Of a DNA stretch of 64,000 nucleotides, positions 12,185-63,223 are shown in pieces. Position 1 is the stretch's first letter. The number at the start of each line of letters is the position of its first letter. The stretch lies in assembly GCF_004011885.1 (NCBI RefSeq), contig NZ_SBEF01000005.1, positions 1 through 64,000 of the forward strand, in the 5' to 3' direction. This stretch comes from Serratia microhaemolytica. Its GTDB lineage: Bacteria; Pseudomonadota; Gammaproteobacteria; Enterobacterales; Enterobacteriaceae. Made by a program: the position numbers and the translations under genes. Under the pieces are notes generated by a model, which was not told the origin of the DNA, did no database searches, and saw only the letters and a program-made list of their open reading frames with translations.

Positions 12185-13774
12185 TTAGGCATTGGGGATA
12201 AACAGCGAGAAGATTGCACCGTGCGGATCATTATCCGTTACTTCAATGCTACCACCGGCTTGCGCAACATAACGCGCTACCAAATGTAGCCCAATGCCGT
12301 GGTCACCTTTCTGTTTGCTGCTGATGCCCGGTTCAAATAGGGTGTCACGCAGTGCGGGATCAATGCCGCTGCCGTGATCGGCTACTTCGATAATCAACTC
12401 GTGTGTGTTGTCGACGAGGTAGAGTTCCACTACGCCATAGGGCGGCGCGGTGCGTAGTGTCGCTTCGACCGCGTTATCCAGCAGATTGCCGATAATTGAC
12501 ATCAGCTCGGTTTCGTTCAGTGAACGTGGCAGTTGCTGCAACTGGCAGGCTGGATCAAAGCAGAGCGTGATGCCTTTTTCGGCCGCACTGGCATATTTAC
12601 CCAGTAGCAGCCCACACAGAGGCGCGGAGTTGAAGCGTTGTGAGATGAAATCGAGCATCTCTTGTACCCCTTCCGATTGCGCGGTGATGTAGCGCATCGC
12701 TTCATCGTAGCGTTGCATATGCAGTAGGCCGGCCAGGGTGGCAGTCCAGTTCAACTGTTCATGGCGAATAATGCGCAGGCTGTCGGCATAGCGCTTGACT
12801 TGGCTGAGTTGGCTGCTGAGGGTGTTGATGTCATTTTTATCACGGAAGCTGATCACCCAGCCGAGCAGTTCATCATCCTGCATAATACGCACTCGGCTGG
12901 CAATCACGCGTACATGGTTGAAGCGGCAGACTTCATCATGCAGATCTTGGTGTTGATCAGCAGTAAAGAAGTCAGGTTGTGTCTGGATCACGCTGTTGAC
13001 CGGCTGCCCGAGTAGCTGGTGCAGTGGTTGCCGTAACGCGAGGCGTTCACGCGCGGCGTGGTTGAGGGTGATGATGCGTAGCTGGCGATCGACGGCAATC
13101 ACCCCTTCATAGATTGCTTCCAGTAGCGCTTTCTGTTGGCGCACCAGCAGGGCAATCTCTTTTGGCTCTAACGACAGCATTTGGCGCTTGAGGTTTTTCG
13201 ACAGTAGCCAAGAGAACAGAAATAGTGCGATCAGCAACAGCACAATCGATACGCTGATCTGCATCAGTATTCGTGTGTTGATGCTGTCAATGTAGGATTT
13301 CAGGTAGCCCACCGAGACGATACCGATCACCTGTTGGTTGCTATCCAGCAGTGGCGCTTTGCTGCGTAGCGAAACACCCAATCCCCCTTCACGGATCGAG
13401 ATAATGGTGTTACCTGCTAGCACTTCGCTATTGTCGCCACCGACCATTGGTTTGCCTAAGCGTTCTGGGTGTTCGGAGTGGTAAAGATGCAGTGTTTGAC
13501 GATCACCAATCACGATATAACTGGCATCACTGACAGCACGAATTTTTTGCATCAGTGCGGCGATCGCTGCGCTATCTTGCTGGATGACTGCACTGAGCAG
13601 GGTTGGCATCCGCGCGATCGCGCGTGCTTGTACTTGAGCGCGTGCGCCTAAATCGCGGTGTAGCTGCTGATCCCAGCGGTAGTAAGCATAACCACCAATC
13701 AGTGATAACAGCAGTGATGAGAAGGCGACCAAACAGAGGAACAGCTTAATGTGAAAAGAGAGTTTGATGGTCAT
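12185..13774 (-). CDS. citA: Citrate sensor histidine kinase CitA (DpiB)
   Basis: Membrane kinase that senses external citrate and phosphorylates CitB. In its 529 residues one sees a first membrane helix (LFLCLVAFSSLLLSLIGG), a periplasmic PAS-type citrate domain, a second helix near residues 175-195 (ISVSIVLLLIALFLFSWLL), a cytoplasmic PAS domain, the dimerisation box RHEQLNWTATLAGLLHM with the likely phospho-His near residue 337, and the ATP-binding boxes NLLDNAVEA, DHGSGID and GDHGIGLHLV. It converges on citT and lies on the far side of the operon from citB, an unusual separation. Confidence 0.94.
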   Translation of the reverse strand: MTIKLSFHIKLFLCLVAFSSLLLSLIGGYAYYRWDQQLHRDLGARAQVQARAIARMPTLLSAVIQQDSAAIAALMQKIRAVSDASYIVIGDRQTLHLYHSEHPERLGKPMVGGDNSEVLAGNTIISIREGGLGVSLRSKAPLLDSNQQVIGIVSVGYLKSYIDSINTRILMQISVSIVLLLIALFLFSWLLSKNLKRQMLSLEPKEIALLVRQQKALLEAIYEGVIAVDRQLRIITLNHAARERLALRQPLHQLLGQPVNSVIQTQPDFFTADQHQDLHDEVCRFNHVRVIASRVRIMQDDELLGWVISFRDKNDINTLSSQLSQVKRYADSLRIIRHEQLNWTATLAGLLHMQRYDEAMRYITAQSEGVQEMLDFISQRFNSAPLCGLLLGKYASAAEKGITLCFDPACQLQQLPRSLNETELMSIIGNLLDNAVEATLRTAPPYGVVELYLVDNTHELIIEVADHGSGIDPALRDTLFEPGISSKQKGDHGIGLHLVARYVAQAGGSIEVTDNDPHGAIFSLFIPNA

Positions 13775-13858
13775 ATCACGCCATTGATCGCTAGGTTCTG
13801 GTAATGGCTTACCTTATCACGTGCCAGTCAGCTTGGGTTAGTCAGTTGGTTGACGCAT

Positions 13859-14626
13859 TCAGGCACCCGGCGCAGTGAAACGGCCAAATAGCCGGTAACG
13901 GCTGCCAGGATAGAGCAGGCGAGAGGAGGAGACTACCGTTTTGCCAGACCAAGTACGGCGGTGGATCAGTAGCCCCGGCTCATGCTCTGCCAGTTGTAAC
14001 AGTTCGCGTTCATTTGCGCTCGGGATCACCGCTTCCACGATATGCTCACCGGCGGTGAGTGGTGCCGATTCAGTCAGATAGATGTAGGGTGTGAGTTGGT
14101 CGAAATCCTGCTGCATGTAGTCAGGCGCGGCAAGTGGATTGATGCAGCGATCTTCTACCTGTACCGGAATGTCATTCTCGTAGTGGACAATTTGTGAGTA
14201 GAACACCTGCTGGCCAGGGTGAATGTTTAACGCTGCGGCTTCTTCACTGCTGGCGGGGCGTGCGATCAGTTGCAGGATTTTGCTGCTGTGACGATGGCCG
14301 CGTGCGGCGATCTCATCGGCGATGTTATGGACTTCGAGTAATGCGGTATCGGCTTTCGCTTCCGCGACAAAGGTGCCGACGCCTTGCATTCGTACCAGAA
14401 AACCTTCGCTGGTCAGTTCACGCAGTGCGCGGTTGATGGTCATGCGGCTGACACCTAACTGATTCACCAGTTCACTTTCGGAGGGAACTCGCTGGTGCGG
14501 TTGCCAGTGCCCAGCGCGGATCTGGCTGATGATGGCTTGTTTAACCCGTTGATAAACAGGTGCTGGGGTGTCGCTCATCGCGGCAGCTAATTGCAGCAGG
14601 GGCTGTTGGTCGACCAAGATATTCAC
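13859..14626 (-). CDS. hutC: Histidine utilisation repressor HutC
   Basis: GntR-family repressor of histidine catabolic genes, released by urocanate. It has an N-terminal winged helix (YQRVKQAIISQIRAGHWQPH, then PSESELVNQLGVSRMTINRALREL, residues about 25-75) and a C-terminal UTRA ligand domain with VEDRCINP, ending RYRLFGRFTAPG. The frame begins with GTG 14626. ATG 14578 (MSDTPAPVYQ) matches the usual HutC N-terminus better, and neither has a strong ribosome site. A TGTA-N2-TACA palindrome lies about 50 bases upstream. The gene diverges from hutF. Confidence 0.92.
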   Translation of the reverse strand: MNILVDQQPLLQLAAAMSDTPAPVYQRVKQAIISQIRAGHWQPHQRVPSESELVNQLGVSRMTINRALRELTSEGFLVRMQGVGTFVAEAKADTALLEVHNIADEIAARGHRHSSKILQLIARPASSEEAAALNIHPGQQVFYSQIVHYENDIPVQVEDRCINPLAAPDYMQQDFDQLTPYIYLTESAPLTAGEHIVEAVIPSANERELLQLAEHEPGLLIHRRTWSGKTVVSSSRLLYPGSRYRLFGRFTAPGA

Positions 14627-14972
14627 CTCGATAAATAAAAAAAGAGTAGCAGTAGTTTACTGTTGATGTCCAAGCATGTATATACAAGTAAACATCAGTT
14701 CATCGCATCGGTGATCAACACTGGCTGATCGTGTTTATTTCATTAACGGTTGTTTAATTTTTTGCCTGAGCGCTGGCTGTTGATACTGCTTTTTGCGGCA
14801 GGAGAGTAGCATAACAGCCGAGGGCAGAAGTTTGCAGGTTAAATAGTAGCGTTTGATGCGGCGAGCTTCATGCCAGGGTTGAGCAATTGCTGAGACTGAA
14901 CTGCGGTTTTTCTGTTTGCGTCTGCGTGGTTGTTGCACGTGGTTACCTCATCGATCTCATTGGGAATTTCGT
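14627..14972. other. hutC/hutF intergenic region
   Basis: This 346-base gap between divergent genes holds the HutC operator palindrome at its left end. The right-hand 230 bases contain no clear motif. A minus-strand open frame of 67 codons (14735-14938) is Lys/Arg/Gln-rich, matches nothing I know and looks spurious. Confidence 0.5.
14677..14686. promoter_or_regulatory. Candidate HutC operator
   Basis: TGTATATACA is a perfect palindrome of the TGTA-N2-TACA form described for HutC operators in Pseudomonas and relatives. It lies upstream of hutC in the hutC/hutF intergenic gap, where autoregulation and control of hutF would be expected. I found no second copy between here and hutF or upstream of the permease. 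Confidence 0.6.
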
Positions 14973-16343
14973 ATGCCTGCCTATTTTGCTTCTCGTGCGC
15001 TGCTTCCATCTGGTTGGGCGCATAACGTGCGGTTGGATGTTGATGATCTGGGCCAATTCAGCCAGATCACCCCTGATGCTCTGCCCGATGGCGCGGTCTG
15101 TCTGCACGGCGATGTTGTGCCTGGGATGCCAAATCTTCATTCGCATGCTTTTCAACGTGTGATGGCCGGGCTGGCCGAGATTGCTGGCGATCCTCAAGAC
15201 AGTTTTTGGACGTGGCGTGATTTGATGTATCGCCTGCTTCAGCGTTTGACCCCCGATCAGGTCGCGGTGATTGCCCGTCAGTTATATATTGAGATGTTAA
15301 AAGGTGGCTACACCCAAGTGGCAGAGTTTCACTATCTTCATCATGCCCCAGGTGGCAAGCGCTATGCCGATCTGGGTGAGATGACGGCTCAGCTCAGTTG
15401 GGCGGCCGAGCAGGCCGGTATCGGTTTGACACTGTTGCCGGTGTTGTATAGCTATGCCGGTTTCGGTGCTCAGCCGGCGCAAGCTGGGCAGTTGCGCTTT
15501 ATTCAGGATGTCGACAGCTATTTGCGCCAGCAGCAGGTGGTGGCACGACAGGTTGCCACGCTTCGCGAGCAAAATCAGGGTATTTGCTTCCACTCATTGC
15601 GTGCGGTTGAGTTGCAGCAGATGCAGCAGGTGTTGGCACACAGCAGTGATCAACTGCCGGTGCATATCCATATCGCCGAGCAGCAGAAGGAAGTGAATGA
15701 TTGTTTGGCATGGAGTGGGCAACGTCCGGTGGCGTGGTTGTATCAGCAGTTAGCGGTCGATCAGCGCTGGTGTCTGGTTCATGCGACTCATCTTGATCAG
15801 GGCGAGATCCACTCGATTGCTGCCAGTCAGGCCGTGGCAGGCCTCTGCCCGAGCACCGAGGCCAATCTGGGCGATGGGATTTTCCCCGGTGTTGCTTATC
15901 TACAGCAGCAGGGGCGTTGGGGGATCGGTTCTGATAGCCATGTGTCACTCAGTGTGGTGGAGGAGTTGCGCTGGTTTGAGTATGGTCAGCGCTTGCGTGA
16001 TCAACGGCGTAATCGGCTTAGCACGCCCCAGCAGCCTTCGGTCGGTGATTGGCTCTATCAGCAGGCGCTACAAGGGGGTGCTCAAGCTTGTGGGGTAGCG
16101 ATTGGCAAACTGGCGATCGGTTATCGTGCGGATTGGCTGGTGTTGGATGGCGATGATCCCTATCTACAGGGGACGCCAGCGGTTTCTCTGCTCAATCGCT
16201 GGCTGTTTGCCGGTGGTCAGCAGCAGATCCGTGATGTGTTTGTCGCCGGGCGGCAAGTGATCGAACAGGGGCAGCACCACTTGCAGCAGCAGAGTGATGC
16301 GCAGTTTTTACAGGTGCTGAAGGCTTGTCAACAGGAGGTATGA
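14973..16343 (+). CDS. hutF: Formimidoylglutamate deiminase HutF
   Basis: Hydrolyses N-formimino-L-glutamate to N-formyl-L-glutamate and ammonia, the fourth step of the five-step histidine pathway, which is then finished by a formylglutamate deformylase. The 456-residue amidohydrolase shows the metal motif PGMPNLHSHAFQRVMAG, FHYLHHAPGG, HIHIAEQ near residue 230, HATH, CPSTEANLGDG and the metal Asp in GSDSHVS. The open frame extends further, but ATG 14973 has GGGAA six bases before it and gives a normal N-terminus. It overlaps hutD (ATGA). Most enteric hut operons use HutG formiminoglutamase instead, so HutF is less usual here. Confidence 0.95.
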   Translation: MPAYFASRALLPSGWAHNVRLDVDDLGQFSQITPDALPDGAVCLHGDVVPGMPNLHSHAFQRVMAGLAEIAGDPQDSFWTWRDLMYRLLQRLTPDQVAVIARQLYIEMLKGGYTQVAEFHYLHHAPGGKRYADLGEMTAQLSWAAEQAGIGLTLLPVLYSYAGFGAQPAQAGQLRFIQDVDSYLRQQQVVARQVATLREQNQGICFHSLRAVELQQMQQVLAHSSDQLPVHIHIAEQQKEVNDCLAWSGQRPVAWLYQQLAVDQRWCLVHATHLDQGEIHSIAASQAVAGLCPSTEANLGDGIFPGVAYLQQQGRWGIGSDSHVSLSVVEELRWFEYGQRLRDQRRNRLSTPQQPSVGDWLYQQALQGGAQACGVAIGKLAIGYRADWLVLDGDDPYLQGTPAVSLLNRWLFAGGQQQIRDVFVAGRQVIEQGQHHLQQQSDAQFLQVLKACQQEV

Positions 16344-16933
16344 TGCGCTTAACCCGATTTAGTTTTGCACAACTTGCAGTGAGCCGTTGGCGGAATGGTG
16401 GCGGTGAGACGCGTGAGATCACTAGCCAACCGCTAGGTGCGAGTCAATTTGACTGGCGAGCCAGTATCGCGACGATTGCGCAGGATGGGCCATTTTCTGC
16501 TTTCCCCGGTATTGATCGCTCGATCACGTTACTGGCGGGAGGTGGGGTACATCTGTTCGCCGCTGAAGGTGTTGATCACCGTCTGGATCAGATTGGTGTA
16601 CCGTTTGCTTTTGCGGGTGATCTGCCGCTACAGGCGCAATTGTTGGCGGGCAGTAGTCAGGATTTCAATATTATGACTCGGCGCGGTCGCCACAGTGCCA
16701 GCGTACAGCGACTGGTTAGCAGCCAGGTTATTGATCCTGCTCATGCCGGTGTGCTTTATGTACTTGGTGGTGAGTGGCTGTTGCCTGACCAAAGCTCACT
16801 GGTTGCCCAGCAGGGGGTTTGGTGGTTGGCCGGTGAGGGGCCGACAGCATTGCGGTTAAAACAGCAGGAGCGCGCCGATCCAGCGGCAGTATTGTGGGCT
16901 GAGATCAGAATAGTGTGCTGTCAACTGGATTAA
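16343..16933 (+). CDS. hutD: HutD family protein
   Basis: Cupin-fold HutD family, commonly found in hut operons and proposed to moderate histidine catabolism. The exact role is not settled. The 196 residues include SRWRNGGGETREI near the start, FDWRASIATIAQDGPFSAFPGIDRS and FNIMTRRG, typical of the family. ATG 16343 lies four bases after AGGAGG and overlaps the hutF stop; longer starts read through the ribosome site. A terminator hairpin follows about 110 bases downstream. Confidence 0.92.
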   Translation: MRLTRFSFAQLAVSRWRNGGGETREITSQPLGASQFDWRASIATIAQDGPFSAFPGIDRSITLLAGGGVHLFAAEGVDHRLDQIGVPFAFAGDLPLQAQLLAGSSQDFNIMTRRGRHSASVQRLVSSQVIDPAHAGVLYVLGGEWLLPDQSSLVAQQGVWWLAGEGPTALRLKQQERADPAAVLWAEIRIVCCQLD

Positions 16934-17044
16934 TTTTATTAAAAAACAAAAAATTAACTATTTTTAACCAAAAGGGCACTATTGGATTGCTTCAGGTGCT
17001 TGTGTTTTGGCTGGCAGTTAGGGCAAAATACGCCAAATGCAGAT

Positions 17045-17076
17045 AGCCGACGTGTTAAACCGTCGGTTATTTTTTT
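17045..17076 (+). terminator. Intrinsic terminator after hutFD
   Basis: AGCCGACG (17045-17052) pairs with CGTCGGTT (17061-17068) across an 8-base loop, with one G-T pair, and is followed by AT and a run of T. It should end the hutF-hutD transcript and separate it from the permease. Confidence 0.85.
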
Positions 17077-17407
17077 GCATTGCCTTTAAGCAATTTGCTT
17101 TTTATACACCAAGCGAGGCCGGTCATCGAGCCGGATAGATAAATAGTTCCGTTGCAATCAAACAAAACTTTATGGTTGCAACTTATGAGGATAACAATGA
17201 TGGGGCAATTTTTCACTTTAGCACCGGTGCCCGCCGGCATCCGCTGTGGCCGCAGCGATTATGGAGCAACCAAGGCAGCATTGCCTTGCCACCTTGCTTC
17301 CCTCATTCCCCTATTTGAATTTAGTCCCACGTTGCGAAGTTTCCCTGCAACCTTGAGTTTTGGCGTGTCTACTCTCCGTCAGGCTGAAGGTAAGGGGGGG
17401 CTTAGTA
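17077..17407 (+). promoter_or_regulatory. Structured leader of the permease gene
   Basis: Several elements stand between the hut terminator and the permease start. There is an inverted repeat GTTGCAA/TTGCAAC (17151-17157, 17176-17182), a small hairpin with CGCTG/CAGCG arms near 17242, and a perfect 7-bp hairpin CAAGGCA-GCAT-TGCCTTG near 17272. A ribosome site and ATG at 17186-17199 open a 73-codon frame that runs into the permease gene. I match none of this to a known riboswitch class. It may be an attenuation-type leader. Confidence 0.4.
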
Positions 17408-38964: not shown

Positions 38965-39648
38965 TTATTGATTTGTTAATTTTTGTTTGATGTATGCTAA
39001 GGCCTGTTGCCTAACTTGCTGAATTGACATTTCGGTGGCATCGATAATCAGGGCATCTTCTGCCGGTATTAATGGGGCGATTGCGCGGTTGCGATCACGA
39101 TCATCCCGTTGTTTTATCTCTGCTAATATTGTTTCAATGCTACCGCTAAAACCTTTTTCTTGCAGTTGTAGCAGTCGACGTTTTGCCCGTTCTTCTGCGC
39201 TGGCGTCGAGAAAAATTTTTACCGGTGCATCGGGGAAAACGATGGTCCCCATGTCTCGACCATCGGCAATCAGCCCCGGCAACTCACGAAATGCACGTTG
39301 ACGACGCAGTAATGCCTCACGCACACGCGGGAAAGCGGCAGCTTGTGATGCGGTATTGCCCACCGCTTCGGTGCGGATTTGATGACTGACATCTTCCCCT
39401 TCCAGCATGATCTGCATGTTGCCGTTTTGTGTTACAAAGCAGACATCCAGGTGTGCGGCTAATGGAACTAGCGCTTCTTCAGAGCTGATATCTACCTGAT
39501 GATGTAATGCAGCCAGAGCCAACACGCGATAGATCGCTCCCGAGTCCAGCAGATGCCAGCTTAGTGTTTCAGCCAGCGCTTTACACAGCGTGCCTTTACC
39601 CACACCACTTGGGCCATCAATGGTGATAACCGGGGCTAATGTCGTCAT
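38965..39648 (-). CDS. cmk: Cytidylate kinase Cmk
   Basis: Phosphorylates CMP and dCMP. The 227 residues have the P-loop [17 protein letters not shown] near residue 10, [15 protein letters not shown] with the substrate-binding Asp and Arg, and [15 protein letters not shown] near residue 127. It is first in the leftward cmk-rpsA-ihfB block, which is inverted with respect to serC-aroA compared with E. coli. Confidence 0.97.
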
Positions 39649-39738
39649 TTCTCTTTCCTTTAGCTAAAAAGACTTTGTTTATGCGCTTTTGTTAGCGGAT
39701 TGCCTGGCATTATATACGTAAAGTAGTGTAAAGAGCAG

Positions 39739-39969
39739 TTATCTGCTTTTCGGTTCATAAGGCAGACAGGAAAACTTGCTTGATTCAGCTCGGTAGTGCA
39801 TCACGCGTTGGCGAAAGTAGTCGCGCAGTTCTGCCGGTTGTTCGCGTTCGACCAGATCAGCAACCACTGGCATATTGTAGCGTTCCTTAAATGCCACACC
39901 AGCAGCCGCGAGGTCGACATTAATTTTGTCCATTTCCAGTTTTGGTAGCTCGGCTAGGTTATATCCCAT
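39739..39969 (-). CDS. holE: DNA polymerase III theta subunit HolE
   Basis: Small subunit of the replicase core that stabilises the epsilon proofreading subunit. From ATG 39969 the product has 76 residues, as in E. coli, with [20 protein letters not shown] and a C-terminal LPYEPKSR, which match HolE closely. The longer open frame adds 28 unrelated residues. It stands alone between cmk and mfd. Confidence 0.95.
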
Positions 39970-40103
39970 GTGTTCTCTCTTGTGTGACTTAACGGCTCTC
40001 TCAGTCGCGCCATGTTCGTTGGCTGGTTGCCTTGGATAGCGGCAGGTTGACATTGCTGCTGCCGGTTTGGGCCATCAGCAGCAGTCAATATCTATCGAGA
40101 GGC

Positions 40104-58122: not shown

Positions 58123-59031
58123 TTATTTGATCTCAACAATCTCTAAACGCAAATTATCATCATCGTCTTCTTGCCAGCGTTGCGTTTGAGCAGGTAACTC
58201 TTCGCGATCAAAAGCCAGATCGCCCCCATGCGCTATGGCATCACCATGAGCGATTGACTTAAAGTCAAACAGCGTACCGTCACACAGGTGCGATGGCACC
58301 ACATTTTGCATTGCGCTAAACATAGTCTCAATTCGCCCGGGGTAGCGCTTATCCCAGTCACGCAGCATTTCAGCGATCACTTGGCGCTGCAAATTGGGTT
58401 GTGAACCACAAAGATTGCACGGAATGATAGGGAACGCTTTGGCGATAGCAAAACGTTCAATATCTTTCTCTCGGCAATAAGCGAGCGGCCTGATGACAAT
58501 ATGTTTACCATCATCGCTGATCAGCTTCGGCGGCATCCCTTTTAGTTTGCCACCGTAAAACATGTTTAATAGCAGTGTTTGTAGGATGTCATCACGGTGA
58601 TGACCTAGCGCGATCTTCGTGGCGCCTAACTCACTGGCCGTGCGGTAGAGAATGCCACGGCGTAGGCGTGAGCAGAGCGAGCAGGTGGTTTTTCCCTCAG
58701 GAATTTTTTCTTTCACGATGCTGTAGGTATTTTCCTGCACGATTTTGTATTCAATACCTAATTTGGAAAGGTAATCAGGCAGAATGTGCTCAGGAAAACC
58801 AGGCTGCTTTTGATCAAGATTGACAGCAACCAATGAGAAATTGATTGGGGCACTTTGCTGAAGGTTACGCAGGATTTCCAACAGGGTGTAGCTGTCCTTG
58901 CCACCAGAGAGACAGACCATAATGCGGTCGCCTTCCTCAATCATGTTAAAGTCGGCGATCGCCTCGCCGACATGACGGCGCAAACGCTTCTGCAGCTTAT
59001 TCAGGTTGTATTGCTGTTTTTGATTTAGCAC
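58123..59031 (-). CDS. ttcA: tRNA 2-thiocytidine synthetase TtcA
   Basis: Thiolates C32 of certain tRNAs, using ATP and a [4Fe-4S] cluster. The 302 residues show the PP-loop [17 protein letters not shown] near residue 38, the CxxC pair [11 protein letters not shown] near residue 116, the C-terminal cluster Cys in IPCNLCGSQ near residue 207, and ALGHHRDD. It is monocistronic with its own terminator. In E. coli zntB and ttcA are also near one another. Confidence 0.97.
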
Positions 59032-59548: not shown

Positions 59549-62182
59549 ATGGAAAATCGGACAGCCGTGTTATTACGCCGTTTAAATGAGTTTTCTGCGC
59601 GTGCATTAGAAAGTGCCGTGTCATTGTGCCAAACACGCGCACACGCCCAGGTGACGCCGGAGCACTGGTTATTAAAGTTACTTGAATTAGGTGAGGGAGA
59701 TTTAACGGTGATCGCACGACGTTATGAGTGGGATCTGGAAGCGATTTGGCAAGCACTGCTGCAATGGCTTGAACAGCAGCCGCGATCTGTGCGGAGTAAG
59801 CCAGAACTCTCCCCAACACTACAGCAGTTACTGACACAGGCTTGGCTGATGGCGACATTGGCAGACGATCACCAGATACGCAGTTATCACCTGCTGGCAG
59901 CGATGATTGAAAACCCAAGTTTGGTTAATTGTCATGGCTTGTGGCGATTGCTAACCGTAACTCCAACGCAACTTTCCAGATTACGCCCAATACTTGATGC
60001 GCAATCAGACGAAAAAATTGAGCCTGGATCAGCGCAAGTCGCTACTTCAGTCCATGTTGCTCAGCAGCCTGGTGAAAGTACAGGCGTGGAAAAAGCCGCA
60101 ATCACCTCCCAGCAACCCGATGCCAGTTTAACGCGTTTCACCATTGATGTGACTGCACGAGCCAGAGAGGGAAAAATTGATCCGGTATTTGGCCGTGATA
60201 GTGAAATCCGCCAAATGATGGACATCCTCTGTCGTAGAAGAAAAAACAATCCGATCTTGGTTGGTGAACCCGGTGTCGGTAAAACCGCGTTAGTCGAAGG
60301 TTTGGCACTGCGCATTACCGAGGGTAATGTTCCTGAAAGCCTAAAAAGTGTCACCTTACGTACGCTGGATTTAGGTCTGTTACAAGCTGGAGCGGGTGTT
60401 AAAGGCGAGTTTGAACAACGGTTGAAAGGCATTATCGAGGCGGTACAACAATCCACCACTCCGATTTTATTATTTATTGATGAAGCACATACCATTATTG
60501 GGGCAGGCAATCAGGCGGGGGCTGCTGATGCGGCGAATTTATTAAAGCCAGCACTGGCACGCGGTGAACTACGGACGATTGCAGCAACTACTTGGAGTGA
60601 ATATAAGCAGTATTTTGAACGTGATGCGGCGCTTGAACGGCGCTTCCAGATGGTAAAGGTTGATGAGCCCGATGATCAGACAGCTTGTTTAATGTTACGT
60701 GGCTTGAAAGCACGTTATGCCGAACATCATGGTGTTCACATTAGTGGTGCAGCGATCCAGGCGGCGGTGACGTTGTCACGTCGTTATCTGGCTGGACGAC
60801 AACTGCCGGACAAGGCAGTCGATCTGCTCGACACAGCGGCAGCACGAGTGCGCATGAGCCAGGATACGCTCCCAGAACCACTGACAGTGCTACAGGCAGA
60901 ATCGATGGCACTTGAGATGGAACAACAAGAACTCCTTCAAGATCAAAAAGTAGGTGGCCAGATCGATACTGCTCGCATAGCAGCGATTGAACGACGTCAG
61001 CTTGAATTGCAGCAGCAACAGCAGCAGTTGAGTAAGCAGTTTGAAGATGAAAAACAGTTGGTTGAAAAGCTAAAAGCGTGTCGCAGTGGTGACATGAGCC
61101 ACGCTCAACAGCGTGCACTCTATGCTGAACTGGACACTCTGCATCGTGGCAATCCACTACTGACACTCGATGTTGATGCGCGTGCAGTCGCGGCAGTGAT
61201 CGCAGACTGGACCGGAGTACCGCTATCGAGTCTATTAAAAGATGAACAAAATGACCTGTTGATGCTGGAACAACAACTAGCGCACAGGGTTGTTGGACAA
61301 TCGACAGCACTCAACGCAATTGTGCAGCAGCTACAAGCGGCGAAAACCGGTTTAAGCGCAGAAAATGCACCACTGGGCGTATTTTTACTGGTGGGGCCGA
61401 GTGGGGTAGGCAAAACGGAAACGGCACTGGCGCTAGCGGATACACTTTATGGCGGTGAAAAATCGCTAATTACGATTAATCTTTCTGAGTATCAAGAACC
61501 ACACACAGTTTCACAGTTGAAGGGCGCACCGCCGGGATATGTCGGTTATGGACAAGGTGGTGTGCTGACCGAAGCGGTGCGTAAGCGACCGTACAGTGTC
61601 GTGCTGCTGGATGAGGTAGAGAAAGCCCATCGCGATGTCATCAACCTGTTTTATCAAGTGTTTGATCGAGGATTCATGCGCGACGGAGAAGGACGAGAAA
61701 TTGATTTCCGTAATACAGTGATATTAATGACTGCCAATCTCGGCAGTGAGCAATTGATGCAGCAACTTGAATTACAACCTGAAACAACAGAGAGTGAATT
61801 GCATCAGTTACTGCATCCTATTTTACGTGCCCACTTCCAGCCGGCGCTGTTGGCGCGCTTCCAAACTGTGATCTATCGTCCGCTCGACCAGCAAGCGATG
61901 CGCACTATCGTTGAGATGAAGTTGGCACAAGTCTGCCAGCGTTTGCAACGCCATTACGCAATCAGCACGGAGATAGGGGAACAGTTGAGTGTTAACCTCA
62001 CGGCCGCCTGCCTGTTACCAGATAGTGGCGCGCGCAATATCGATAGTCTGCTCAACCAGCAAATTTTGCCGATCCTGAGTCAACAGCTGCTTTACCGTTT
62101 GTCGGAAAAGCAGCCGTTAAGTAGATTACTACTTGATTGGGATGAGGAAGAGGGGATAGTGTTAGAGTTCGGCACCGAGTAG
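59549..62182 (+). CDS. clpV: Type VI secretion ATPase TssH (ClpV), stand-alone
   Basis: AAA+ unfoldase that recycles contracted TssB/TssC sheaths. The 877 residues have a ClpV-type N-terminal domain (RRLNEFSARALESAVSLCQ and VTPEHWLLKLLE), a first AAA+ domain with Walker A LVGEPGVGKTALVEGLAL near residue 235, GAGNQAGAADAANLLKPALARG, a coiled middle domain, and a second AAA+ domain with LVGPSGVGKTETALALADTL near residue 615. ILLFIDEAHT and the gap after the middle domain distinguish it from ClpB. No other type VI gene lies within 4 kb on either side, so its sheath partners, if any, are elsewhere. Confidence 0.93.
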   Translation: MENRTAVLLRRLNEFSARALESAVSLCQTRAHAQVTPEHWLLKLLELGEGDLTVIARRYEWDLEAIWQALLQWLEQQPRSVRSKPELSPTLQQLLTQAWLMATLADDHQIRSYHLLAAMIENPSLVNCHGLWRLLTVTPTQLSRLRPILDAQSDEKIEPGSAQVATSVHVAQQPGESTGVEKAAITSQQPDASLTRFTIDVTARAREGKIDPVFGRDSEIRQMMDILCRRRKNNPILVGEPGVGKTALVEGLALRITEGNVPESLKSVTLRTLDLGLLQAGAGVKGEFEQRLKGIIEAVQQSTTPILLFIDEAHTIIGAGNQAGAADAANLLKPALARGELRTIAATTWSEYKQYFERDAALERRFQMVKVDEPDDQTACLMLRGLKARYAEHHGVHISGAAIQAAVTLSRRYLAGRQLPDKAVDLLDTAAARVRMSQDTLPEPLTVLQAESMALEMEQQELLQDQKVGGQIDTARIAAIERRQLELQQQQQQLSKQFEDEKQLVEKLKACRSGDMSHAQQRALYAELDTLHRGNPLLTLDVDARAVAAVIADWTGVPLSSLLKDEQNDLLMLEQQLAHRVVGQSTALNAIVQQLQAAKTGLSAENAPLGVFLLVGPSGVGKTETALALADTLYGGEKSLITINLSEYQEPHTVSQLKGAPPGYVGYGQGGVLTEAVRKRPYSVVLLDEVEKAHRDVINLFYQVFDRGFMRDGEGREIDFRNTVILMTANLGSEQLMQQLELQPETTESELHQLLHPILRAHFQPALLARFQTVIYRPLDQQAMRTIVEMKLAQVCQRLQRHYAISTEIGEQLSVNLTAACLLPDSGARNIDSLLNQQILPILSQQLLYRLSEKQPLSRLLLDWDEEEGIVLEFGTE

Positions 62183-62707: not shown

Positions 62708-63223
62708 ATGTCTACTAAAAAAAATGTAATTCTGGCCGTACTGTTTTCATCTTTAGCCGGTAGTGCAATGGTCGCTAATGCTGCTCCTTATGCAGAAGTA
62801 CTGTTGTATGGTGTTATCACTAATAGCACCTGTGACGTGGTGGCGAATAAAGGGCAGGCAACATTGAATGTTGGTGTCTTCAAAACCAAAGAGTTCGCTG
62901 TAGATACACAAACAGCGCGCACTGTCGCTTTACCGGTTGAGTTGACTAACTGTGCTGGCGATGAAGTGGGGGAGTTGATCATTCAAGGACAGGCATCAGG
63001 TAATAACGAGAATCTTTTTGTCTCTAAAGCTGATAATACTGTCGGGTTTATGATCAAAGGAAATGCTAATCAACAAGTTCAGGTCGGCAAAGGTGTCACT
63101 GTTCCGGTTAGCAAATCGGGGCCGAACAAGTATGAGTTCCGTGTTGGTATGGGCTCGACTACTGCGTCACCAAAAACAGGTAATTATAGTGTTCCAATCA
63201 CTGTTGCTTACATCGTTAACTAG
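62708..63223 (+). CDS. Pilin-like (type 1 fimbrial family) exported protein, isolated
   Basis: The 171 residues begin with a signal peptide (VILAVLFSSLAGSAMVANA). The mature part has the two Cys of chaperone-usher pilins (NSTCDVV and ELTNCAGD, about 40 residues apart), beta-rich sequence, and the C-terminal penultimate aromatic pattern SVPITVAYIVN. I use ATG 62708 because the upstream extension is not signal-like. AAGGGA lies 11 bases before it, a long spacing. No chaperone, usher or adhesin gene is adjacent, so it may be an orphan fimbrial subunit or a spore-coat-U-like secreted protein. A terminator follows. Confidence 0.8.
   Translation: MSTKKNVILAVLFSSLAGSAMVANAAPYAEVLLYGVITNSTCDVVANKGQATLNVGVFKTKEFAVDTQTARTVALPVELTNCAGDEVGELIIQGQASGNNENLFVSKADNTVGFMIKGNANQQVQVGKGVTVPVSKSGPNKYEFRVGMGSTTASPKTGNYSVPITVAYIVN

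What the first reader, a model, noticed from the sequence alone, without database searches (positions are those of the whole stretch)
59549..62182. Intact ClpV gene with no type VI secretion neighbours
The gene is full length with both Walker A motifs, yet it is flanked by ttcA and a pilin-like gene with no tss genes nearby. It may serve a secretion cluster elsewhere, be the survivor of a lost one, or have a new substrate.
Basis: partly seen in the sequence, partly recalled or inferred. Interest (0 to 1): 0.5.

Follow-up and report, generated by a model that had tools for sequence, protein, structure and literature searches.

The report
Stray ClpV of a scattered T6SS
This gene makes the recycling motor of a bacterial protein-injection machine, and it sits far from the rest of that machine's genes, apparently because three of the machine's core parts now lie alone at separate places in the chromosome.

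Summary
In detail: window 59549-62182 encodes a full-length TssH/ClpV with no type VI neighbour. The genome carries two type VI systems. The contig 19 cluster has its own, different ClpV. The contig 1 cluster has the core components except Hcp, ClpV and TssE; orthologues of these three lie as single genes on contigs 2, 5 (the finding) and 10. In relatives this ClpV lies beside hcp and an ompA-like gene in 56 of 56 unnamed loci; of 80 named loci 79 have the ompA-like gene and 79 have hcp. The contig 1 TssC keeps SVYASLFEKINL, the segment shown in enteroaggregative E. coli to bind this ClpV type; the contig 19 TssC has FLLDEI instead. Most likely the finding is the sheath-recycling ATPase of the contig 1 machine, working from an unlinked gene. 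Its nearest relatives and third-position GC differ from those of the contig 1 cluster, so it may be an older or separately acquired copy rather than one simply moved out. Nothing was tested at the bench. Split clusters, lone hcp or vgrG genes and clusters without clpV are in print; my searches found no lone clpV. New variant of a known kind, modest interest.

The parts
59549..62182 (+). tssH/clpV, 877 aa, the finding
   Evidence: TIGR03345 1096 bits over cut-off 885; Walker motifs; N domain matches PDB 4hh5, E 1e-66
59549..60043 (+). ClpV N domain expected to bind the TssC N-terminus; Glu21 and Lys84 align with Glu24 and Arg87 of EAEC ClpV1
   Evidence: alignment to 4hh5, positions checked, role of Glu24/Arg87 from PMC5048182
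62298..62340 (.). inverted repeat with T runs, possible terminator after clpV
   Evidence: 16-nt arms, 88% complementary; one search lists a terminator-like site here on the minus strand only, and the region had 6 such sites against 4.1 expected, so this is weak
58123..59031 (-). neighbour, not part of the system: ttcA-like
   Evidence: PF01171
62708..63223 (+). neighbour, not part of the system: pilin-like gene
   Evidence: ORF; no Pfam match; three paralogues at 50-55% identity in the genome

Best explanation
The gene is the TssH (ClpV) of the type VI system whose main cluster lies on contig 1. That cluster has tssB, C, K, L, an ompA-like gene, vgrG, tssM, A, a PAAR gene, tssF, G and J, but no hcp, clpV or tssE; these are encoded as unlinked single genes (hcp on contig 2, clpV here, tssE on contig 10). 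After the contig 1 sheath contracts, the N domain of this ClpV would bind the N-terminal segment of the contig 1 TssC and its two ATPase rings would pull the sheath apart for reuse. Shown here: gene content, absence from the cluster, orthology, conserved motifs, conserved binding segment. Inferred: expression, binding, sheath recycling, and that the system fires.
For: Contig 1 cluster content. Genome-wide matches to TssC, ClpV, Hcp and TssE: only two TssH, one here and one in contig 19; Hcp and TssE matches all lie outside contig 1. Relatives: ompA-like gene and hcp within 4 kb of clpV in 56 of 56 unnamed loci; in 80 named loci 79 and 79 (L055 cut by its contig end, L093 without hcp). tssJ beside tssE in 27 of 28 relatives' loci. 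Contig 1 TssC has QSVYASLFEKINL against EAEC DSVYASLFEKINL; contig 19 TssC has FLLDEI. EAEC's two ClpVs are not interchangeable (PMC5048182), so the contig 19 ClpV, 46% identical to this one and 26% in the N domain, is an unlikely stand-in. Only 10 of 430 near-invariant positions changed on a long branch of 0.54.
Against: No expression or binding data. The clpV tree and third-position GC disagree with the contig 1 cluster, so the partners may not have co-evolved. Hcp departs at 25 of 117 near-invariant positions, more than any of 53 relatives; TssK at 9 of 115, more than any of 84; TssE at 8 of 76, more than any of 29: the system is divergent or relaxing. SLFEKINL is in 58 of 79 relatives' TssC, so it marks the subtype, not this pair. 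ClpV is not strictly needed in some systems (PMC5363822, passages).
Confidence: 0.72

Rival explanations
1. Relic: the gene is the last piece of another, lost cluster of the same subtype and serves no working machine; the contig 1 cluster is itself losing parts.
For: ClpV groups with Lelliottia-type ClpVs while TssK groups with Rahnella rivi. GC3 of clpV is 0.102 below the mean of contig 1 tssC and tssK; none of 79 relatives is that low. IS1 remnant at the contig 1 edge. Hcp, TssK and TssE are unusually divergent. A decaying cluster of this kind exists in G034, with truncated tssB and tssC.
Against: An open 877-aa frame with 420 of 430 near-invariant positions kept on a long branch means selection for most of that branch. 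The other core genes of contig 1 and the lone hcp and tssE are also open frames that match their families.
Confidence: 0.17
2. It serves the contig 19 system as a second ClpV, or both systems.
For: It is in the same cell; sharing of ClpV between systems has been considered for P. putida (PMC5363822, passages).
Against: Contig 19 has its own ClpV; its TssC segment is of the other class; in EAEC ClpVs do not cross-bind (PMC5048182).
Confidence: 0.05
3. A new substrate outside type VI secretion.
For: Only its isolation.
Against: N-domain match to the EAEC ClpV1 structure with Glu24 kept and Arg87 replaced by Lys; a partnerless sheath in the same genome.
Confidence: 0.03
4. Assembly artefact: clpV, hcp and tssE belong in the contig 1 cluster and were misplaced.
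For: 134 contigs; reads could not be checked.
Against: All sit inside contigs of 93 to 216 kb with intact genes on both sides, and the two gaps lie inside the 227,884-base contig 1.
Confidence: 0.03

Closest known systems
ClpV1 of the Sci-1 type VI system of enteroaggregative E. coli (PDB 4HH5/4HH6; PMC5048182)
   Same: N domain matches over 155 residues, E 1e-66; Glu24 kept; partner TssC segment 12 of 13 identical
   Different: In EAEC clpV is encoded within its own cluster (abstract); here it is alone. Arg87 is Lys here.
tssB-C-K-L-ompA-hcp-clpV clusters of Enterobacterales such as Lelliottia sp. WAP21
   Same: ClpV 75% identical; same subtype of machine
   Different: There hcp and clpV are inside the cluster
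P. putida K2 and K3 type VI clusters (PMC5363822)
   Same: A cluster without its own clpV (passages)
   Different: No lone ClpV-family gene was found there; the authors say the whole group lacks clpV
Neisseria T6SS-A, core genes in two loci (PMC10210955)
   Same: A core set split over the chromosome, with ompA-tssD-tssH together (passages)
   Different: There blocks are split; here three single genes are

Membership tests
TssH/ClpV (TIGR03345) | Full-length match above the curated cut-off, better than ClpB and ClpA relative to their cut-offs | tested here: met
   1096 against 885 bits; ClpB 765 against 1232, ClpA 628 against 993
TssH/ClpV (TIGR03345) | Two AAA modules with Walker A and B motifs | tested here: met
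   Motifs at 239, 307, 616, 684
TssH/ClpV (TIGR03345) | ClpV-type N domain with TssC-binding groove | tested here: met
   E 1e-66 to 4hh5, E 8e-12 to 4uqw, E 3e-11 to 3zri; Glu24 kept, Arg87 to Lys. Sequence only; no structure predicted
TssH/ClpV (TIGR03345) | Gene lies within a tss cluster | tested here: not met
   No other type VI gene in the 64-kb window. Usual for the family but not required by the protein's definition
TssH/ClpV (TIGR03345) | Binds TssC and disassembles contracted sheath | not testable with these tools
   Needs a bench test
Complete type VI system (contig 1 type) | All 13 core genes tssA-M present in the genome, apart from those of contig 19 | tested here: met
   A, B, G, K, L and VgrG (I), C (84), D and E (34), F and J (86), H (6). 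TssM was scanned in two halves: the second gives 202 bits to a full-length model with cut-off 388, the first only a Pfam hit of 26.5 bits against 27; identified also by position and a continuous frame
ClpB disaggregase | Score above the ClpB cut-off | tested here: not met
   765 bits against 1232

The most novel reading that the evidence does not exclude
A chimeric, dispersed machine: the contig 1 system lost its own hcp, clpV and tssE and now runs on unlinked copies, with a ClpV from another sub-lineage whose dose and timing are set apart from the sheath, so that sheath recycling, tube supply and baseplate assembly are under separate control.
Probability: 0.25. Interest if true: 0.5.

Novelty: new variant of a known kind. 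Interest (0 to 1): 0.35.

Why it matters
Read gene by gene, the contig 1 cluster looks incomplete and this gene looks like an orphan; together with the lone hcp and tssE they make a full core set. It is a natural case for asking whether ClpV must be encoded with its sheath, whether a ClpV of another sub-lineage can serve it, and how far a type VI core set can be broken up and still work.

Tried and rejected
Remnants of hcp or clpV in the contig 1 gap (L005 11393-12033): tblastn finds only the flanking ompA-like gene and vgrG and chance-level scraps. The gap has weak 27-31-nt direct repeats, no tandem array, and one 104-aa ORF on the other strand that was not searched. Insertion marks beside clpV: no direct repeats in either flank and no insertion sequence noticed by eye. 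Promoter scan: 6 sites found, 6.7 expected. The contig 36 PF04965 hit as tssE: 20.3 bits against 53.2, in a block that looks like phage tail genes (phage reading from recall). A second TssA/VasL-like gene for contig 1: a partial query matched only contig 19. E. coli genomes: 382 of 5426 match, in the rows listed only at ycjF. No structure was predicted: the N domain has a close solved relative and only single proteins can be modelled.

Limits of the trees: they are quick trees on 46 relatives, of which up to 20 were picked by me and the rest drawn at random from 74 loci. AU tests reject ClpV with L071 (p 1.4e-5) and TssK with the five Lelliottia-type rows (p 1.9e-25) but not ClpV lying outside those five (p 0.12); the groups were chosen after seeing the trees. 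TssC gives a third neighbour, Edwardsiella piscicida (98), so mosaicism is general in these clusters. TssE and Hcp trees were too weak to place the genes.

Rows dropped: searches left out ORFs covering under 85% of the query. One search was cut at E 1e-250. One search lists the best 80 of 574 confirmed stretches. One search left out the weakest TssE rows and one second fragment. L141, L142, L212 and L213 were fetched and not used.

Papers: passages only for PMC5363822, PMC9134191, PMC3942780, PMC3554697, PMC7108748, PMC13098142, PMC4239648, PMC13129497, PMC10210955, PMC9048695; abstract, passages and two sections for PMC5048182; the other titles as search listing only. Searches behind 'no lone clpV found': in an open-access library only.

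Full report
OBSERVATION. The window is bases 1-64000 of contig 5 (124,754 bases) of a 3.26-Mb, 134-contig genome, 99.94% complete by the tool's figure and the only one held for its genus. The ORF at 59549-62182 is an uninterrupted TssH: 1096 bits to TIGR03345, cut-off 885, with both Walker pairs. Its neighbours are a ttcA-like and a pilin-like gene, and tblastn with the type VI proteins of both clusters and six relatives finds nothing else of the kind in the 64-kb window.

TWO TYPE VI SYSTEMS. TssC matches two loci. Contig 19 holds tssB, C, E, F, G, J, K, L, M, TssA- and VasL-like genes, hcp and its own ClpV (a VgrG was not looked for there). Contig 1 holds tssB, C, K, L, an ompA-like gene, vgrG, tssM, A, a PAAR gene, tssF, G and J. 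Genome-wide matches to ClpV, Hcp and the TssE family all lie outside contig 1. There are two TssH proteins; the other two ClpV-like genes pass the ClpB and ClpA models.

THREE LONE GENES. hcp: contig 2, about 39506-40036, minus strand, between a CTP synthase gene and a molybdopterin-binding-domain gene, followed by a 136-aa ORF without family match. clpV: the finding. tssE: contig 10, about 13746-14180, minus strand, between polA and an IclR-type regulator. TssE passes TIGR03357 (82 against 53 bits) and Hcp TIGR03344 (163 against 59). Two other Hcp-like genes (contigs 6 and 14) match the family more weakly.

WHERE THEY BELONG. Of 149 genomes drawn from the family, G000 included, 50 have this ClpV at E 1e-250 or better; the 49 others hold 56 such genes, and in 56 of 56 hcp and the ompA-like gene lie within 4 kb (in L101 the hcp match is only 56% identical). 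Of the 80 best named loci, 79 have the ompA-like gene (L055 is cut by its contig end) and 79 have hcp (not L093); 71 have a vgrG within 4 kb. For tssE, tssJ lies beside it in 27 of 28 loci fetched. On contig 1 an IS1 transposase remnant begins about 40 bases after tssJ, where tssE would be, and a 640-base stretch without recognised gene lies between the ompA-like gene and vgrG, where hcp-clpV would be. Scattering is not unique: 14 of 56 ClpVs have no tssE within 45 kb on their contig. Many of these lie near contig ends, but G108 has tssA-tssE 348 kb from the rest on one contig. A lone clpV was seen only in G000 among the 137 loci looked at (1 + 56 + 80).

SPECIFICITY. In enteroaggregative E. 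coli (EAEC) the two ClpVs cannot replace each other because each N domain binds only its own TssC; the Sci-1 segment is DSVYASLFEKINL, and Glu24 and Arg87 of ClpV1 matter (PMC5048182; abstract, passages, two sections). The contig 1 TssC carries QSVYASLFEKINL; the contig 19 TssC carries FLLDEI, like the LLDEII motif of the V. cholerae class (PMC4239648, passages). SLFEKINL is in 58 of 79 relatives' TssC, so it marks the subtype. The finding's N domain matches 4hh5, the EAEC structure, at E 1e-66; Glu24 is kept (Glu21), Arg87 is Lys84. It is 26% identical to the contig 19 N domain and a median of 62% to 86 relatives. By sequence the finding pairs with the contig 1 sheath; binding was not measured.

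CONSTRAINT. The finding departs from 85 relatives at 10 of 430 near-invariant positions; 4 of the 85 depart as much or more. At its branch length (0.54 changes per site) this means selection for most of that time. Same count: TssB 0 of 57; TssC 5 of 311 (7 of 78 relatives as high); TssL 2 of 32 (2 of 47); TssK 9 of 115 (0 of 84); Hcp 25 of 117 (0 of 53); TssE 8 of 76, above all 29 relatives (slightly looser rule). Hcp, TssK and TssE are the weak points of the functional case.

HISTORY. ClpV groups with Lelliottia sp. WAP21, G048, G081 and G122 (SH-aLRT 99-100), while the contig 1 TssK sits with Rahnella rivi (94) inside another strong clade (100). AU tests reject exchanging the two placements, but not that ClpV lies just outside its group. 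TssC gives a third neighbour, so mosaicism is general. GC3 of clpV lies 0.102 below the mean of contig 1 tssC and tssK; in 79 relatives the difference averages +0.039 (sd 0.040, lowest -0.056). Its GC3 of 0.454 falls within that of seven chromosomal genes of the window (0.405-0.518). So excision from the present contig 1 cluster is not the only reading: the gene may be an older resident or come from another cluster and have taken over when the contig 1 copy was lost.

NOVELTY. Lone hcp and vgrG genes and cores split into blocks are in print (PMC3942780, PMC10210955, PMC13098142; passages), as are clusters without clpV (PMC5363822, PMC9048695; passages). Searches for a lone clpV, tssH or tssE gave only the P. 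putida discussion, which looked for one and found none; not every listed paper was opened. The protein is ordinary; three single scattered core genes are the variant.

Noticed in passing
L007:8218-8677 (contig 1): IS1 transposase remnant directly after tssJ, with three further near-identical copies on contigs 13, 43 and 65; beyond it an ORF with a lantibiotic-dehydratase-like match.
   Followed up: partly
L005:11393-12033 (contig 1): 640-base stretch of degenerate 27-31-nt direct repeats where hcp and clpV sit in relatives.
   Followed up: partly
L005:12033-13121 and 13118-17095 (contig 1): A truncated VgrG (362 aa) directly before a 1325-aa VgrG with a long C-terminal extension.
   Followed up: no
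L007:3602-4777 (contig 1): PAAR protein whose C-terminal part weakly matches EspK/GogB-type models, well below their cut-offs.
   Followed up: no
L137:1-1899 (contig 10): A second VgrG on the other side of polA from the lone tssE.
   Followed up: no
L135:5023-5433 (contig 2): 136-aa ORF after the lone hcp with no NCBIfam or Pfam match; possible effector or immunity gene.
   Followed up: no
window 62708-63223: Lone pilin-like gene; three paralogues at 50-55% identity on contigs 16 (two) and 37.
   Followed up: partly
L138 (G034 contig 2): A relative's cluster with truncated tssB and tssC beside an intact clpV: a cluster in decay.
   Followed up: no
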